Origin: Nitzschia sp. pyKryTriq1
Taxonomy: Eukaryota > Bacillariophyta > Bacillariophyceae > Bacillariales > Bacillariaceae
Reading direction: 5' to 3'
Assembly (NCBI GenBank): GCA_956465555.1
Contig: OY101121.1
Coordinates: 768,722-832,721, forward strand
DNA: 64,000 nucleotides
Part shown: positions 14,946 through 55,227 of the stretch, piece after piece
Layout of the letters: each line of letters begins with the position of its first letter
How positions within the stretch are numbered: position 1 is the stretch's first letter
The notes under the pieces: model-generated
The model's input: only the letters and a program-made list of their open reading frames with translations
Database searches by the model: none
Told to the model about the DNA's origin: nothing
Position numbers and translations under genes: made by a program

Positions 14946-15779
14946 TCACCAGCATGTCCATGCCGAACATGACCCCGGCGAAGTATTGTGATCGATGCCA
15001 GACTCTTCCTCCTCCTCCTCGTCAAAATTGTACCGCTGTGTTATCTTGTCGAATTCTTCTTCGCAAATGATATCGAAGGAGTCGTTGTCTCTAGACTCGT
15101 CGATTTCTAGGAAAGTCTCCATCTTCTTTGCGTTTCCATCCAGATTGGAATTTGGCCGAACGACAATCTTCTCCATTCCTTTTTGAATGGCCTCAAGAGC
15201 GCTCGACGAGGATTCAATCGAAATGCATGGGTAGTAGTTTTCCAGCCGCTCCTTGATCAAAGGTGACAATCCGGCGGGGAGTTTGATGTGACTGTTATTG
15301 CCCCCTCGTTGCCGGGGCCTACCTCGCGTGATCTTCGTTGGGCGCCGTGATGAAGGAGACGCGGCAGCACTCTTCATTTGATATTGAGTGTGACTTGATG
15401 GTTGGATCACCGATCCAACATCGCTGTTCCTTGTCATCTGGGATTGGTGAAGCTGGATGGCTTCCTCATCTGATAGCTTGGGTACACAGGTCACTCGACG
15501 ATTAGTGAAATTATATTGAGCAGTGATGCTATTGAAGTAATCATTGTCAAGCATCCAATTGCTTCTTCCCTCTTGTTTGTCGACCTTTGGACCCTTTCCG
15601 TTTGTGCGTAGCGAGGGAGGAACAATCACTTCATATTCTTCAGAATCTTCCTCCTTCTCTGGTTGGCTGGATTTGGGCTTTTCCTTCTTCTCTCTCCGCT
15701 TCCTCCCTTTTTTTCGTCTCTTCTTTGTTCTTCCTCCTTCACCAAAAATGATCGAAAATAATTTGTCCTCGCTCGTCAT
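14946..15779 (-). CDS. Hypothetical charged protein with two YNF motifs
   Basis: 277 residues, not recognised. The N-terminus is followed by a very basic block (KKRRKKGRKRREKKEK at about 18-34), which looks like a nuclear or nucleolar localisation signal. The middle has RGRPRQRGG, an AT-hook-like RGRPR core. Two copies of a short motif occur near each end: YFNSITAQYNF at about 82 and EFDKITQRYNF at about 250, the second followed by an acidic run. The ATG at 15779 is first in frame. It opens away from the gene at 16371 (divergent). A DNA- or chromatin-associated role is only an inference from the basic and RGRPR stretches. Confidence 0.6.
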   Translation of the reverse strand: MTSEDKLFSIIFGEGGRTKKRRKKGRKRREKKEKPKSSQPEKEEDSEEYEVIVPPSLRTNGKGPKVDKQEGRSNWMLDNDYFNSITAQYNFTNRRVTCVPKLSDEEAIQLHQSQMTRNSDVGSVIQPSSHTQYQMKSAAASPSSRRPTKITRGRPRQRGGNNSHIKLPAGLSPLIKERLENYYPCISIESSSSALEAIQKGMEKIVVRPNSNLDGNAKKMETFLEIDESRDNDSFDIICEEEFDKITQRYNFDEEEEEESGIDHNTSPGSCSAWTCW

Positions 15780-16370: not shown

Positions 16371-18319
16371 ATGTCTTATTATCCAGATGATGATAGTCAG
16401 TATTCAGACTATACAGACGCGACAGAACAGTCAGCCGAAGTACGGAGTGAAGAAGGACCTAAATCTGTTGGGTCCTGGAGCACGACATCATGCTCGAGCA
16501 GTTCCAGCGCCTCGGAAACCTCTGAAACTACAAGAACAACAGCTACTACTGCTACCACGGCAACCTCCTACCGCTACGCGAACAGGCACTTGACTCAACC
16601 TGAAAAACAAAGTCATAGCTGGATGGATGGTCTCTGGTCTTGGTATTTAAACGATGGCAAGGGCGAGAGAGATCGACAAAAGGACGCCGATGATGACTGT
16701 TCCTCTGTGGTCACGGCAGACATTGCCAAGATCAGCCTTGAATCAGAAATAAAGGATCACTCAGTGAGAATCAGGGGGCACAGAGACGAGGAAATCTCCG
16801 TATCTTGTCATCATCGGCATAAGGACGCCGACGGTGACTGTTCCTCTGTGGTCGCGGTAGACATTACCACGACTAACCATGGATCAGAAATAAGGGATCA
16901 CTCATTGAGAGTCCGGGGGCACATACTAGATAAGGGAAATTCCATATCAGAGTCCGAAAAGCGCGGTGACTCTACTTACAAAAAGTTGAAACGAAAAACG
17001 ACAAAGAAAGATCGCTATGACACACACGACGATTGTGACGATTTATCCCAGGCAACTGTGGATAGCGGCAACGTTGCATCGAATTACGTTCAAAGAAAAT
17101 ATAGGAATCGTTCTCGTGTGTCCAGAGAAGAAAGAGACGATCGATCCCTCGGAGAGAAACAGAACGAGGTCAATGCTGGATCAAGCGACAGCGTTGCATC
17201 AAAGCACTCTCGGAAAAAGAACTGGGTTCAATCTCTTGTACCCATAGCAGAAGGAGATAATAAATCACGTGGTGAGCCGAACCAGAATTTCAATGCAGAT
17301 GAAAGCGATAGCATTGTACCGAAATATTCCCGAAGAAAAAAAAGGGCTCGACCTCGTGTATCCAAAGCTGAAGAGGATGATCGATCACTTGGAGATCAAA
17401 GTCAGGAACTCACCGCTGGACACAGCGACAGCGTTGAACCAAATTACTCTCAAAGACTAAACAAGGTTATATCCCTTGTATCAAGAATAGAAAGAAATGA
17501 TCGGTCACTCCTTGCAGAGCAACAGAAGAAACGATCGTGGCAAAATCCTTTCGGCCACAAAGCAAAAGAGCTTCCACCAAGACCTGCAAGAATCACAGGA
17601 ATCCACCAACGTCATCATCCGTCGTCGACCAAGAAAATAAATGAAAGGCCGTCCTCGTCAACTTCCACGGGTGGACCAGTAGAACCGAACTCCATCGATC
17701 TTATTCCGAACCATGCTGCTGCCTCACAACCACGCTTGCTTGGAGCAGGAGAAAAATTTGCATATCCAAAACTGGCAGTAGATTTCATAAGTAATGTGCC
17801 TACTGGTAAGTGGGAAAGGAGATTTGTTGAATATTCGGGCGATTCATGTTCCATCTTCACTCACTTCACATCTCTTACTGTGCAGAGGAAAAAGAAAGCC
17901 GTTCCCATTTTCTTCAAGATGAGGCTTCAGCTACACTCTCGAGCCACGCGACTTTGCAATCACGATATAATGAGCATAGACAAGATGCCGAAGCCACTGA
18001 ACATGCACCAAGAGAACGCCTGCATTGGAACACGTATTCTGGATCCTCGGCTGTTTTCCATACGCTCTCGTCACGAAGTGATATAGAACGACGCAACGAG
18101 ACGTATTCAAGGCCTTTGGGACATCCCTCTATGCCTTCATATACCATGAGCATGGATCGCTACGACAGCAAGAAAGCTTTTGAGATGAACGATGATGATA
18201 CTGATACTGATAGTGTTGTCAGCACGGTTTCGAAACTTATCAGCCGAATTCGCGAGGCCACCTTCTTGGACAACCCAGGCGAGATGAGCATGGATAGGAG
18301 CCACAACATGCCATGGTAG
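16371..18319 (+). CDS. Hypothetical repeat protein, 2 exons
   Basis: Exons 16371-17805 and 17886-18319 joined across an 80-nt GTAAGT...TGTGCAG intron (phase 1) give 622 residues. Not recognised. The N-terminus is Ser/Thr/Asp-rich. Two copies of a roughly 45-residue unit (KDADxDCSSVV...EI(K/R)DHSxR(I/V)RGH) lie at about 103-195. Four degenerate copies of a roughly 40-50-residue unit, keyed on (E/R)DDRSLG...SDSV...YSxRxxK, occupy about 235-390. The C-terminal exon is polar (YSGSSAVFHTLSSRSD, DDDTDTDSVVSTVSKLISRIREATFLD). No membrane segment or catalytic motif is visible. Without splicing the frame ends at 18086; the spliced frame continues in a better-behaved protein. Confidence 0.65.
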
Positions 18320-18560: not shown

Positions 18561-19637
18561 TCAGGGATCAACCGTATGCAGTCGTGCCTTGATCGCTCGA
18601 ATTCTGTCGAGGGCTTCCTTTCGATCCAGCTTTCGCCTTCTGTAGTCGGCGTCCCCGCGTTTGCCATCTCGAATTGCCCACTCCAAGGGGTCATCTTGAG
18701 CCATGCTGCTGCTACTTGCTTCAGTCTGTGGATGTTTCTTCCGCCCGGCACTCAGGAATACTTGGTCTGTGAGATCAATTGTCTCCACTCTGGAAGCTCC
18801 TTTCCTGCCACTAGATTCACGAGTTCTTCTGGAGGCCGACGGACGTGTGGGGTGAGGCTTTTGACGAATCTCACTTGGATCGTCCGGGAGCCCAGAGGAA
18901 AAGTCCTTCAAGTATTTGATGCGACCGCCATCCCGGAAACGCGAAGTCCGATTGGTAGCTCCTTGATCATCCGCTGGCTCAACTGGGACCCGCCTGGACT
19001 CTCGACGGTTTTGATGCCCATGAGATTGACGATTCTTTGGTCCGTGTCCCAGCGGTGAATAGTGAAATACCTCACCATTACTTCTCGCGCGCTTCTCCTC
19101 CTCGTAATCAACGTCCTCTTGCTCCGGACCAAGGTCTATTTGGATCCGTTGTGCTTTCTTCTTATTCTTCTTCTGCGCACGGTAGTCGGTTTCCTCCTCG
19201 GGTCCGCTGTCTCTTCCAAACATTCCTTGTTTTTCCTCTTGCTTGAGAATACTCAATACAACATCATTTGAGCGGGAGGGCTCGATTACATCTTTCTCTC
19301 GCTGATCCATCTCTTGATCGTCGGAGAGTAAACTATCTAGCTCAATTAGGTGCTTATCAGATTCCTGTTGCGCCTTTTGGATCTTCTCCATATACTTTTT
19401 TGCAAGCTCTTTCTTGCTGCTGCTTCGATGCTTCCTTCTCGCCGGATGAACGTCAGGCTGTTGGTGTCGTGAATCCTCAACGATACCACTATCCAAGTCA
19501 TCATCCAAATAATCGTCTAGGACACATGCCCAAAAACTATCGCACAAGATGGGCGATTCGTCAGCCCGAGTACGGCCCTTTTTCACCATGGTCTTGACCA
19601 CCAAATCAGGCGGTGGAGTGGGAACAACCAAAGCCAT
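18561..19637 (-). CDS. WACVLDDYL-motif protein A (unknown)
   Basis: 358 residues from ATG 19637, or 342 from a better-context ATG at 19589 (GACC-ATGG). Not a known family. The only hydrophobic, ordered-looking part is near the N-terminus: LCDSFWACVLDDYLDDDLD, starting 15-20 residues after the second Met. The rest is highly charged, with coiled-coil-like KKELAKKYMEKIQKAQQESD at about 75-95, a KKNKKKAQR basic patch and a C-terminal RRKLDRKEALDRIRAIKARL helix. The next gene on the same strand (20407-21384) carries the same nonamer at the same place, so the two look like diverged tandem paralogues held together by a short linear motif. Function unknown. Confidence 0.65.
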   Translation of the reverse strand: MALVVPTPPPDLVVKTMVKKGRTRADESPILCDSFWACVLDDYLDDDLDSGIVEDSRHQQPDVHPARRKHRSSSKKELAKKYMEKIQKAQQESDKHLIELDSLLSDDQEMDQREKDVIEPSRSNDVVLSILKQEEKQGMFGRDSGPEEETDYRAQKKNKKKAQRIQIDLGPEQEDVDYEEEKRARSNGEVFHYSPLGHGPKNRQSHGHQNRRESRRVPVEPADDQGATNRTSRFRDGGRIKYLKDFSSGLPDDPSEIRQKPHPTRPSASRRTRESSGRKGASRVETIDLTDQVFLSAGRKKHPQTEASSSSMAQDDPLEWAIRDGKRGDADYRRRKLDRKEALDRIRAIKARLHTVDP

Positions 19638-20406
19638 CGTCGATGTTTTATTGTCTTTCTATTGTACCCTTGAAAGACTTGTTTCATCCGTTGCACTACA
19701 ATGGAGGACAATCCGTGACGAATTGAAAGATCTCTACTCATAGAGAGCTTTGGCGAGATATGCTATTGCACGTGGTGGGTTCCGACTTCCAACGGAAGGT
19801 GTTGGTCCGAGACGAAGTTATCTTGGAACGCGTTGAACCGACACAAGTTCGACCGTTCCGTCGACAAATTCGCGAGTAATCGCACGTCTAATTATCGAAA
19901 TCTCGCCGTAACCGCAAAACACACAAATAAGGCGCCGCGCACTGAAACAGCGAGCCAAAAATAATACGAGGCACAGGCACGCCCTTCGCAAGACGGGACG
20001 ACTAACACATCACTGGTATCGTACTACGAACTGCATGACCGACCACTCTAGAGTAGCAATAGTCTACTCCTCGCAGAGTGAGTTTTTGTTCCTGTCACCG
20101 ATAATAAACTACCGGTACAAGAACGATGACTTGATTGATGAATCTATAGTGTAATAGTGATAGCTCCGCTTACGCCACGCAGAATAAATTATTACCCATC
20201 GGTTTGCTAGCAATAGACTAGTACTAATACCAAGACAGCTCCTTTTTTGTGTAAAGTTGGTATGGTCCCTACTACTAGAGTCCCATACATGTTTGAAGAA
20301 AATTAAGAATAATACGATGAACCAAATATGCATACATAGTTCCTTTCACTCGGGAATTTGTTATGTCAATGTATGAATCTCATTGATTGATCATGTCCGA
20401 ATTACA
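19638..20406. other. Intergenic, about 770 bp
   Basis: 5' flank of motif protein A and 3' flank of motif protein B. Short palindromic blocks occur (CTCTAGAGTAGC near 20046, ACTACTAGAGTC near 20272). No gene or repeat of note. Confidence 0.35.
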
Positions 20407-21384
20407 CTATACTACATATTGTTCTTGTTTCGTCCTCCGCCATTTCGAGGCTAGCTTTTTGCTTGACAAAGTTCGAGCGACAGGTAGAACAACATCCCCA
20501 GATTTTGGCTTCATGGAATCTTTTTTAGGACTCGTCAACTCACTTTCAGCCGGGTTCCCAATCGACTGGCGTCGTGGTCGCGATGCCCCTCTTCGACTCA
20601 GCTCTGCTTGACGTGACTCCAGTAAATTTTCCCATTTTGATGGCGGCGTCTTTCCCCTTCTCCCTTCTCTGGCTTGTTGACTCTTGCCCCTGCTCCTTGA
20701 TGTTGTCGACTTGGTAGATTTCGATTTATTATCCGAGCTTATCCGAGACAATGCCCTGGGCAATAGATCAGAAAGACGCGACGAGCTTTTTGAAGCGAGC
20801 CTTAGAGGCATCGGCATTGGTGCTCCATTCGGACTCTGGTCCTCAGCAGTGTCTCCTGCAGCAGCTTGTTGTTCCTGTTGTTTCTTTTTCTGATGGCGCA
20901 TCCTATGTAATTTTACATTCATGTCCCAGTCTGTAGGAGTATCCCAGTCTATAGGCATATCCCAATCCGGCTCTTTTTTCTCCTCGGGTGCTGGAGGCAC
21001 CGAGAGCCACATTACTGGTGGCATGTCTTGCCCAGAGGCCTCGTCCCAAACCCCAGGTGTTCCATCTCTCTCCTCATCTGATGAATCTAGATCCCTCCCC
21101 CCTCTCGCCCTTGCATCACGTGGATCTACGAACCTTGATTCACGCGGATCGCGAGCTCTCAGACGTCTATTCCTCGGTCTGGGAGTAGCGGTACGAGGTG
21201 TGGCCGCACAAGCAACTATTTCTGGCTTGAGATACCATGGCACTTGTTCGGGTTTGCCAAGGATCTTATTGAATTCGCCCTCTTCTTCTTCGCTTAAATA
21301 ATCATCCAATACACAAGCCCATAATGCTTCTGTTAGTCCCGTCGGACGTACTAGGTGCTGTCCCCCTTTCTGCATCGATGCCAT
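20407..21384 (-). CDS. WACVLDDYL-motif protein B (unknown)
   Basis: 325 residues starting at ATG 21384 (TGACC-ATGG context, MASMQKGG); the open frame reaches 21477 but that part is probably untranslated. The N-terminal LTEALWACVLDDYLSEEEEGE matches protein A upstream (WACVLDDYL identical, acidic residues after it). Downstream is an Arg/Asp region (RDPRESRFVDPRDARARGGRD), a WDMPIDWDTPTDWDM triple repeat at about 140-155, and a Ser/Arg/Lys-rich C-terminus. It looks disordered with one short conserved helix-like motif, which suggests a protein-docking element (inference). No catalytic signature seen. Confidence 0.65.
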   Translation of the reverse strand: MASMQKGGQHLVRPTGLTEALWACVLDDYLSEEEEGEFNKILGKPEQVPWYLKPEIVACAATPRTATPRPRNRRLRARDPRESRFVDPRDARARGGRDLDSSDEERDGTPGVWDEASGQDMPPVMWLSVPPAPEEKKEPDWDMPIDWDTPTDWDMNVKLHRMRHQKKKQQEQQAAAGDTAEDQSPNGAPMPMPLRLASKSSSRLSDLLPRALSRISSDNKSKSTKSTTSRSRGKSQQAREGRRGKTPPSKWENLLESRQAELSRRGASRPRRQSIGNPAESELTSPKKDSMKPKSGDVVLPVARTLSSKKLASKWRRTKQEQYVV

Positions 21385-22135: not shown

Positions 22136-22987
22136 ATGGACGACCATTTGACCTTGTTGGACACGGACGCCGCCTTGCAGCCTCTTTTGGATGCAGCCAA
22201 GGATTCTCTGAGCAGCGTTTCCACTGTGAGGGCGGTGGTGGTGAAGGTCCTGGCACATCCTGAAATTTTCTGTGGATATGATCAGATGAAGGCGCTTTTA
22301 GTGCACGGAAATATTGACGATGCCGCACTCTTGGCAACTCTGGACCTGTTTTCGTACGGAAACTTCGTAGCCTACTCTCAGAACCCCGGCTCCTATTTGG
22401 CCCTCAATGATAAGCAAATTGCGAAACTGCGGCAATTGACACTCCTCTCATGCGTGCAAGAAGCCTGCGAGGTGGGCCAAGCAGCTGTGTCATACGCGTC
22501 GGTCGGCGAGGCGTTGCAGCTTTCTGATCAGCGGGCGATGGAACAGGTCATAGTATCCTGCATCTACAGCCGTACCTTGAATGGCAAACTTTGTCAAAAG
22601 ACTCGACAGCTCATGATATCCGATGTTCCCGCTTGTATCAGTCGAGATGTGCCCCTTGACAAAATTTCACATTTGCTGCATCAATTCCAAGTCTTTCAAG
22701 AACGGCTGGCCACTTCGTATTCGGGACTCGAGGAAGCTCATTCCGATGTCTCGCAATCGCTTGCTCAATCAGCGGCGTATTGGAAAATGGTGCAAGATCG
22801 ACAAGCCAAAGCTCAGACACAAGTACAAAGCTCGTCTGCAGGTGGCGGTGGTACAGGAGGAACAGTCCGCATGGCGGGCTGGCCCGAATCCAGTGTAGGC
22901 GCCCGAAGGTCAAGTGCGAGTCGACAGTCGAAGAGGAGCCGCGGGGGACTAGGGGGACCATTTACTGATCCCTTTCAACGATACTAA
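22136..22987 (+). CDS. CSN7: COP9 signalosome subunit 7 (PCI domain)
   Basis: 283 residues, similar in length to CSN7 of animals and plants (about 225-275). CSN7 is a PCI-domain scaffold of the COP9 signalosome, which removes NEDD8 from cullin-RING ligases. Visible: an N-terminal helical part (HPEIFCGYDQMKALL), LLATLDLFSYGNFVAY, then the winged-helix half of the PCI domain, LNDKQIAKLRQLTLLSCVQE, YASVGEALQLSDQRAMEQVIVSCIYSRTLNGKLCQKTRQLMI, which aligns well with the family. A helical region with QVFQERLATSYSGLEEAH and a Gly/Ser/Arg-rich tail follow. Intron-less. The start at 22136 is the only reasonable ATG. Confidence 0.92.
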   Translation: MDDHLTLLDTDAALQPLLDAAKDSLSSVSTVRAVVVKVLAHPEIFCGYDQMKALLVHGNIDDAALLATLDLFSYGNFVAYSQNPGSYLALNDKQIAKLRQLTLLSCVQEACEVGQAAVSYASVGEALQLSDQRAMEQVIVSCIYSRTLNGKLCQKTRQLMISDVPACISRDVPLDKISHLLHQFQVFQERLATSYSGLEEAHSDVSQSLAQSAAYWKMVQDRQAKAQTQVQSSSAGGGGTGGTVRMAGWPESSVGARRSSASRQSKRSRGGLGGPFTDPFQRY

Positions 22988-54317: not shown

Positions 54318-55227
54318 TGGCCACCCCCAACGAACGAAGGACAGACAAGAAGTCGAACGAACACCCAAACCCGAAACCGATACCAAGAGAGACGACCGAT
54401 GAACCTCATAAGATCATCGAGTCAACCTCGGTATCGCAAATCCCAACTTCGGAATTCTAGATTAATTAGCTTTAAAAGCAACTTTCAAACCATTCAATGG
54501 CGCAACCTAGTAACCCGAAGTGGAAGGATTTCCTCCAGGAGCGGATCCAACAGGAAGGATCATGGGCGAAGGCGAAATCGGAAGGGCCACTCGACAATCT
54601 CGAACCGACGAACAACACAACAACCGAAACGATGAAGCTCGAGGTAGCAGCCTCAGGTGGAGACGCCACAATGTTGGTAGCCTTGAACGAAGGAGAAGTC
54701 AAATTCGTCCACAACATTACCTTGGCGAAGACCCAAGAGGGCTTCGTCTTGGTAGGTGTTACTAATCGGAATCGATCAGGGGCATAGGCCAACGAATTAT
54801 TTCACTAACAGTACTATACCATCGGTCTACAGTGTCCGAGAGAGTTGAGGGTTTGTTGGCGCCTGCGCCATGGCCACCCCCAACGAACGAAGGACAGACA
54901 AGAAGTCGAACGAACACCCAAACCCGAAACCGATACCAAGAGAGACGACCGATGAACCTCATAAGATCATCGAGTCAACCTCGGTATCGCAAATCCCAAC
55001 TTCGGAATTCTAGATTAATTAGCTTTAAAAACCCGCCCGCCATCCCTTCACACCTTGACAAGGACGAGGCAAGGAGATGTACCCAAGGGTATCCCCGAGA
55101 GAGGACGATCCTGCTACGCAAATCGGAATCGATCAGGGGCATAGGCCAACGAATTATTTCACTAACAGTACTATACCATCGGTCTACAGTGTCCGAGAGA
55201 GTTGAGGGTTTGTTGGCGCCTGCGCCA
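54318..55227. repeat. Two-unit direct-repeat cluster (A-B-C / A-D-C)
   Basis: A 160-bp element A occurs at about 54318-54477 and 54871-55030 and is nearly identical. A 106-107-bp element C occurs at about 54765-54870 and 55121-55227 and is also nearly identical. Between A and C lies B (about 287 bp) in the first unit and unrelated D (about 90 bp) in the second. Element C ends in tggcgcctgcgcca, a near-palindrome. This is the layout of a locally duplicated unit with the interior replaced or deleted, or of nested short retroelement remnants. No LTR-retrotransposon genes or clear primer-binding site are visible. Confidence 0.75.
54497..54787 (+). CDS. Small open frame within the repeat cluster (uncertain)
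   Basis: 96 residues, MAQPSNPKWKDFLQERIQQ..., running through element B into C. It looks protein-like (amphipathic, mixed composition) and starts 20 bp after repeat A, so A may be its leader and C its 3' part. In the second repeat unit this frame is missing (D replaces B). Unrecognised; it could be a remnant of a mobile element, for example a gag-like fragment, or chance. Confidence 0.35.
   Translation: MAQPSNPKWKDFLQERIQQEGSWAKAKSEGPLDNLEPTNNTTTETMKLEVAASGGDATMLVALNEGEVKFVHNITLAKTQEGFVLVGVTNRNRSGA

What the first reader, a model, noticed from the sequence alone, without database searches (positions are those of the whole stretch)
18561..21384. Tandem unknown genes sharing only a WACVLDDYL motif near the N-terminus
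Two neighbouring same-strand genes with no other obvious similarity each carry WACVLDDYL followed by an acidic run, about 18-20 residues after a likely start with the same GACC-ATGG context. Everything else is charged, low-complexity and different. A short linear motif that survives while the rest diverges is what an exact docking or degron-type element would look like. They sit in a 6.5-kb run of four unrecognised genes (14.9-21.4 kb). This is my best candidate for something undescribed.
Basis: partly seen in the sequence, partly recalled or inferred. Interest (0 to 1): 0.75.

Follow-up and report, generated by a model that had tools for sequence, protein, structure and literature searches.

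The report
Diatom tandem genes sharing one helix
Two neighbouring, otherwise dissimilar diatom genes for mostly unstructured proteins share one short, strictly conserved segment, which looks like a docking site kept after an old gene duplication, although its binding partner is unknown.

Summary
The shared WACVLDDYL is real and far beyond chance. Gene A (18561-19637, minus strand) and gene B (20407-21384, minus strand) carry it at residues 36 and 22. With the motif region removed, the family profiles show no remaining similarity. Pattern scans of the 40.65-Mb genome found no third copy. Both genes have homologues: 19 other A and 13 other B proteins, plus one A. The only named organism is Nitzschia sp. 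Nitz4, where A and B are consecutive gene models. The motif, [DE]xxW[AE]CxL[DN]DY[LVI], is in 33 of 35 proteins; the two others, of family A, begin downstream of it. In B it is the best-conserved segment. Neither protein matches Pfam. AlphaFold gives mostly low confidence with short helices. Best reading: ancient tandem duplicates that kept one partner-binding helix, with a second in A at its C-terminus. Partner, duplication and cellular role are inferred, not shown.

The parts
18561..19637 (-). gene A: single ORF, 358 aa, mostly low-confidence (disorder-like) model, two short conserved helices
   Evidence: 20 homologues, among them NITZ4_001867
19506..19532 (-). WACVLDDYL of gene A (residues 36-44)
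   Evidence: third-ranked 9-residue block of family A
18579..18638 (-). C-terminal conserved helix of gene A, RRKLDRKEALDRIRAIKARL (residues 334-353)
   Evidence: coordinates; RIRAIKARL and RKLDRKEAL are the two best-conserved blocks of family A; predicted helix 339-355, block pLDDT 89 and 79
   Evidence: Met in 2 of 18 rows at this column, against 15 of 20 at codon 1
20407..21384 (-). gene B: single ORF, 325 aa, mostly low-confidence (disorder-like) model, Arg/Ser-rich C-terminal half
   Evidence: 13 homologues, among them NITZ4_001868
21295..21321 (-). WACVLDDYL of gene B (residues 22-30)
   Evidence: best-conserved 9-residue block of family B is LWACVLDDY
20924..20964 (-). 18-nt tandem repeat inside gene B (in the stretch translated DWDMPIDWDTPTDWD)
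   Evidence: translation

Best explanation
A and B are an old tandem gene pair of diatoms. Each makes a largely disordered protein that docks by the same N-terminal helix, [DE]xxW[AE]CxL[DN]DY[LVI] followed by mostly acidic residues, onto one shared partner, or closely related partners. The rest of each chain diverged freely except for short family-specific blocks. A has a second near-invariant basic amphipathic helix at its C-terminus, so it probably bridges two partners across a disordered linker. B has only the first hook and an Arg/Ser-rich tail, so it would compete with A or bring different material to the same site. Shown: the motif, its conservation, the pairing in this genome and in Nitz4, and the lack of other detectable similarity. 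Predicted with low confidence: the motif helix and disorder. Inferred: duplication, shared partner, bridging, competition, and nuclear location (from Lys/Arg-rich runs).
For: W, C, L, D and Y of the motif are the only invariant columns in the 32-row alignment of both families, from which two A rows lacking this region (P0024, P0031) were left out. An acidic residue three before W is in 32 of 32 motif-bearing rows. Profile comparison aligns 27 columns around the motif (95% probability) and one column, probability 0.2%, once that region is removed. A and B are consecutive gene models in Nitz4 (scaffold17 123580-124776 and 125253-126008, names) and are probably on one contig in a third source (P0021 and P0009 are both listed with a 10860-base contig). 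Six of 27 codon bases differ, all silently. P0035, found by the profile and not used to build it, has both the motif and the C-terminal helix of A. AlphaFold puts a helix over the motif of A (30-44) and over residues 22-27 of B's.
Against: No partner is identified. Helix confidence at the motif is low (blocks of pLDDT 58-65). Independent gain of the motif in unrelated neighbours is not excluded, because nothing else aligns. Homologues were collected by shared exact words, which favours motif-bearing proteins. Only one relative carries an organism name, so spread across diatoms is not established. A hub that serves only two client proteins in the genome would be unusual.
Confidence: 0.5

Rival explanations
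1. The motif is an assembly helix: A and B bind each other, or themselves, through it, and there is no outside partner for this segment.
For: Pattern scans of the genome found just these two copies, side by side. On an ideal helix the invariant residues fall on two faces (W, L, Y at 340-40 degrees; C and D at 200-240 degrees), as expected for a helix packed on more than one side.
Against: No dimer or coiled-coil evidence was obtained or sought beyond single-chain models; the acidic residues after the motif in both chains should repel in a parallel pair (inference).
Confidence: 0.2
2. The motif is an acidic activation-domain-like helix that recruits a coactivator such as Mediator.
For: Aromatic and leucine residues in an acidic setting, in disorder-like proteins with Lys/Arg-rich runs (sequence).
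Against: Gal4 and Gcn4 acidic activators of different sequence bind Med15 by a fuzzy, sequence-independent mechanism (PMC8044209, abstract and passages), so strict W, C, L, D, Y invariance is not expected. Pfam found no DNA-binding domain.
Confidence: 0.1
3. The motif is a degron or other regulated-stability signal.
For: A DSG triplet follows the motif in the window's A, P0016 and P0017.
Against: DSG was found in the first 100 residues of 3 of 35 proteins, while the motif is in 33 of 35.
Confidence: 0.08
4. The motif is an Atg8-interacting (LIR/AIM) motif, W-x-x-[LIV] with an acid upstream.
For: 28 of 33 motifs fit the loose W-x-x-[LIV] core.
Against: 0 of 33 fit the published xLIR pattern (pattern read in PMC5119064). 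Conservation runs past the core to D and Y.
Confidence: 0.03
5. Chance likeness between unrelated neighbours.
For: Nothing else aligns.
Against: About 3e-6 shared 9-mers expected, and no shared word longer than 6 in 2000 shuffles; both copies are conserved in homologues.
Confidence: 0.01

Closest known systems
Short linear docking motifs in disordered proteins (SLiMs, general class; from general knowledge)
   Same: A short, helix-prone, conserved segment in a fast-changing disorder-like chain.
   Different: Five residues are invariant over two families, and only two genes of this genome were found to carry it; the two known motif classes considered (xLIR and acidic activator) were not matched in full.
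Acidic transcription activation domains (Gcn4/Gal4 type)
   Same: Aromatic and leucine residues in an acidic background.
   Different: Those bind Med15 in a fuzzy, sequence-independent way (PMC8044209, abstract and passages); this one keeps W, C, L, D and Y in 32 of 32 aligned rows.
Atg8-interacting motif (xLIR)
   Same: Trp, in 28 of 33 followed by L, I or V at +3, with an acid at -3.
   Different: 0 of 33 match the xLIR pattern.
NITZ4_001867 and NITZ4_001868 of Nitzschia sp. Nitz4
   Same: Homologues of A and B, consecutive models, same motif; A with the same C-terminal helix.
   Different: Gene models only; no paper in the held library contains these two tags.

Membership tests
[quoted passage not shown]
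   0 of 33 motifs (pattern in PMC5119064)
Acidic activation domain | aromatic/leucine residues in an acidic disordered segment | tested here: met
   seen in the sequence: W, L, Y, L with D/E around them in low-confidence models
Acidic activation domain | loose sequence requirement | tested here: not met
   W, C, L, D, Y invariant in the 32-row alignment
Acidic activation domain | activates transcription when tethered | not testable with these tools
   needs a reporter assay
Tandem paralogues (A and B) | adjacent, same strand, in more than one lineage | tested here: inconclusive
   adjacent on the same strand here; consecutive models in Nitz4, strands not shown; probable third case on a 10860-base contig
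Tandem paralogues (A and B) | sequence similarity beyond the motif | tested here: not met
   hhalign after removing everything up to 8 residues past the motif: probability 0.2%
Any Pfam family | match to a Pfam model | tested here: not met
   0 families up to E=1 for A and for B
Any protein of solved structure | sequence match in the PDB | tested here: not met
   0 for family A up to E=10; for A1 (14 family B rows plus window A) two weak hits, ribosomal uL22 E=0.038 and SRSF1 E=3.4, outside the motif

The most novel reading that the evidence does not exclude
A and B form a lineage-restricted diatom regulatory pair built on a new helical docking code. A is a two-hook tether with a binding helix at each end of a disordered linker, and B is a one-hook version that competes for the same site, both acting on a diatom partner that has not been described.
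Probability: 0.25. Interest if true: 0.65.

Novelty: new member of a known kind. Interest (0 to 1): 0.42.

Why it matters
Only around half of diatom genes could be given a function by homology when one 2010 paper was written (PMC2945787, start of abstract in the listing). Here two unassigned genes come with a testable handle: a 12-residue segment in which five residues are invariant, in adjacent genes, plus a second conserved helix in one of them. One peptide pull-down could identify a partner for both at once. It would also be a clean natural example of disordered duplicates that diverge everywhere except at their docking site.

Tried and rejected
Recent duplication or gene conversion: rejected, because 6 of 27 codon bases differ silently and nothing else aligns. 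A genome-wide motif class: not seen in this genome. Searches found A and B only (0 control matches); one search found A and B only, with 1 match to its reversed control pattern. The loosest pattern found A, B and four others against 2 control matches; none of the four encodes the Cys, one has an in-frame TAG, and I did not follow them. Genome searches with whole proteins found A alone for A, and B plus two weak matches (E 0.37 each, outside the motif) for B. These scans ignore introns. No relatives came from viral contigs (B alone; family A) or prokaryote genome contigs (family A); family B as an alignment was not scanned. An apparent C-terminal similarity of A and B was an artefact, as alignment A1 contained window A itself; the clean comparison is. 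A SUMO-interaction reading of VETIDLT in A (motif recalled): IDLT is in 10 of 20 family A rows, and my first regular expression for it found none; not pursued. The profile search with both families scored only 7993 candidates; it added P0035 but failed to list 10 of the 34 proteins found before, so it is incomplete. Searches used B with one extra codon upstream. Papers: WACVLDDYL and six other motif words were in no paper held, nor the two Nitz4 tags; the listings showed no title on this pair, and I opened none of them. sought motif definitions only.

Full report
Observation. On the minus strand, gene A (18561-19637, 358 aa) and gene B (20407-21384, 325 aa) each hold WACVLDDYL. They are 769 bases apart, with B upstream of A in the direction of transcription. 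BLASTP finds one alignment with E below 1, 17 residues, 10 identical, E=1e-5. Random expectation is about 3e-6 shared 9-mers, and the longest word shared in 2000 shuffles was 6.

Corrections. In the family A alignment the codon-1 column is Met in 15 of 20 rows (three rows begin downstream, and P0033 and P0034 differ), while the codon-17 column is Met in 2 of 18, the window and P0028. The motif therefore lies at residue 36 in A and 22 in B, and the shared start context does not hold for A.

Homologues. A search with B listed 14 proteins, one being the window's own; with A, 20, one being its own. A profile of both families added one more of family A, P0035, E=1.7e-13, though that search scored a capped candidate list and left out 10 of the 34 earlier hits. 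The last hits are weak alone (P0031 to P0034, E 0.003 to 1.5), but P0032, P0033 and P0034 carry both the N-terminal motif and the C-terminal helix of A in order, and P0031, which starts downstream, carries the helix. One organism is named: Nitzschia sp. Nitz4, where NITZ4_001867 (A) and NITZ4_001868 (B) are consecutive models 476 bases apart, each as long as an uninterrupted coding sequence (coordinates). P0021 (A) and P0009 (B) are both listed with a 10860-base contig, so a third adjacent pair is likely but not shown. The diatom assignment of the window rests on this named relative.

Conservation. In 32 aligned sequences of both families the only invariant columns are W, C, L, D and Y of the motif (P0024 and P0031, which begin downstream of it, were left out). 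Among these, W-3 is D or E in 32 of 32; W+1 is Ala in 30 and Glu in 2; W+3 is V in 20, L in 5, A in 3, I in 2, M in 2; the position before the invariant D is D in 19 and N in 13; Y+1 is L in 25, V in 6, I in 1. With P0035 the motif is in 33 of 35 proteins. In family B, LWACVLDDY is the best 9-residue block (mean majority fraction 0.98 against 0.48 over the protein). In family A the best are RIRAIKARL (0.92) and RKLDRKEAL (0.89), then WACVLDDYL (0.80, lowered by the two rows lacking it) against 0.41 overall. That C-terminal pattern is in 20 of 20 family A rows, 4 to 16 residues from the end. Against Nitz4, A keeps 11 of 12 residues at 33-44, 16 of 19 at 335-353, and 52 of 290 between. Because homologues were collected by shared exact words, the sample favours proteins with these segments.

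Relation of A and B. Clean family profiles align over 27 columns around the motif, probability 95%. When the part up to 8 residues past the motif is removed, one column at 0.2% remains. The codons differ silently at 6 of 27 bases. Old duplication with drift of the disordered parts is the simplest reading; independent gain cannot be excluded.

Structure. AlphaFold models are mostly low confidence (mean pLDDT 50 and 51). In A, helices are placed at 30-44, 68-100, 317-335 and 339-355; in B at 16-27, 32-41, 54-60 and 152-175. The last helix of A is the best supported (block pLDDT 89 and 79); the motif blocks are at 58-65. No Pfam family matches A or B up to E=1. On an ideal helix the invariant residues fall on two faces, which suggests, without proving, a helix gripped on both sides.

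Uniqueness. The exact degenerate pattern and two loosened ones found only A and B in the 40.65-Mb genome (one control match, none in the others). Whole-protein searches found A alone for A, and B plus two weak matches outside the motif for B. A much looser pattern gave four more matches against two control matches, none with the Cys. So nothing here points to a general docking code in this genome.

Mechanism. I judge it most likely that the motif is a helix by which both proteins dock on a shared partner (0.5), with A bridging to something else through its C-terminal helix. An A-B assembly helix is next (0.2). Activator-like, degron and Atg8-binding readings are less likely: strictness argues against a fuzzy activator (PMC8044209, abstract and passages), DSG is in 3 of 35 and xLIR fits 0 of 33. 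None of these was tested at the bench, and no partner was identified.

Neighbours. The other two genes of the 'unknown run' (14946-15779 minus; 16371-18319 plus) do not hold the motif. BLASTP without composition correction gave weak low-complexity likeness to A, best E=0.001 with the first and 0.024 with the second.

Noticed in passing
window 16371-18319 (+): The neighbouring unknown gene appears to have an 80-base intron (17806-17885, GTAAGT...GTGCAG) that joins two ORFs in frame into a 622-aa charged protein.
   Followed up: partly
window 54318-54477 and 54871-55030; 54764-54870 and 55121-55227: Two pairs of 100% identical direct repeats (160 and 107 nt) within 1 kb; a recent duplication or an assembly effect.
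   Followed up: no
window 19470-19493 (-), gene A residues 49-56: DSGIVEDS, a phosphodegron-like stretch (recalled) just after the motif; DSG there in the window's A, P0016 and P0017 only.
   Followed up: partly
window 18564-19637 (-), family A: Other short blocks conserved within family A: around EVFHYAPL, RRVPIDPDE and LLSDDxExD, and VETIDLT (SUMO-interaction-like by recall; IDLT in 10 of 20 rows).
   Followed up: partly
window 22136-22987 (+): PCI-domain protein (Pfam E=1.1e-5), possibly a COP9 signalosome or proteasome lid subunit (recalled, not tested).
   Followed up: no
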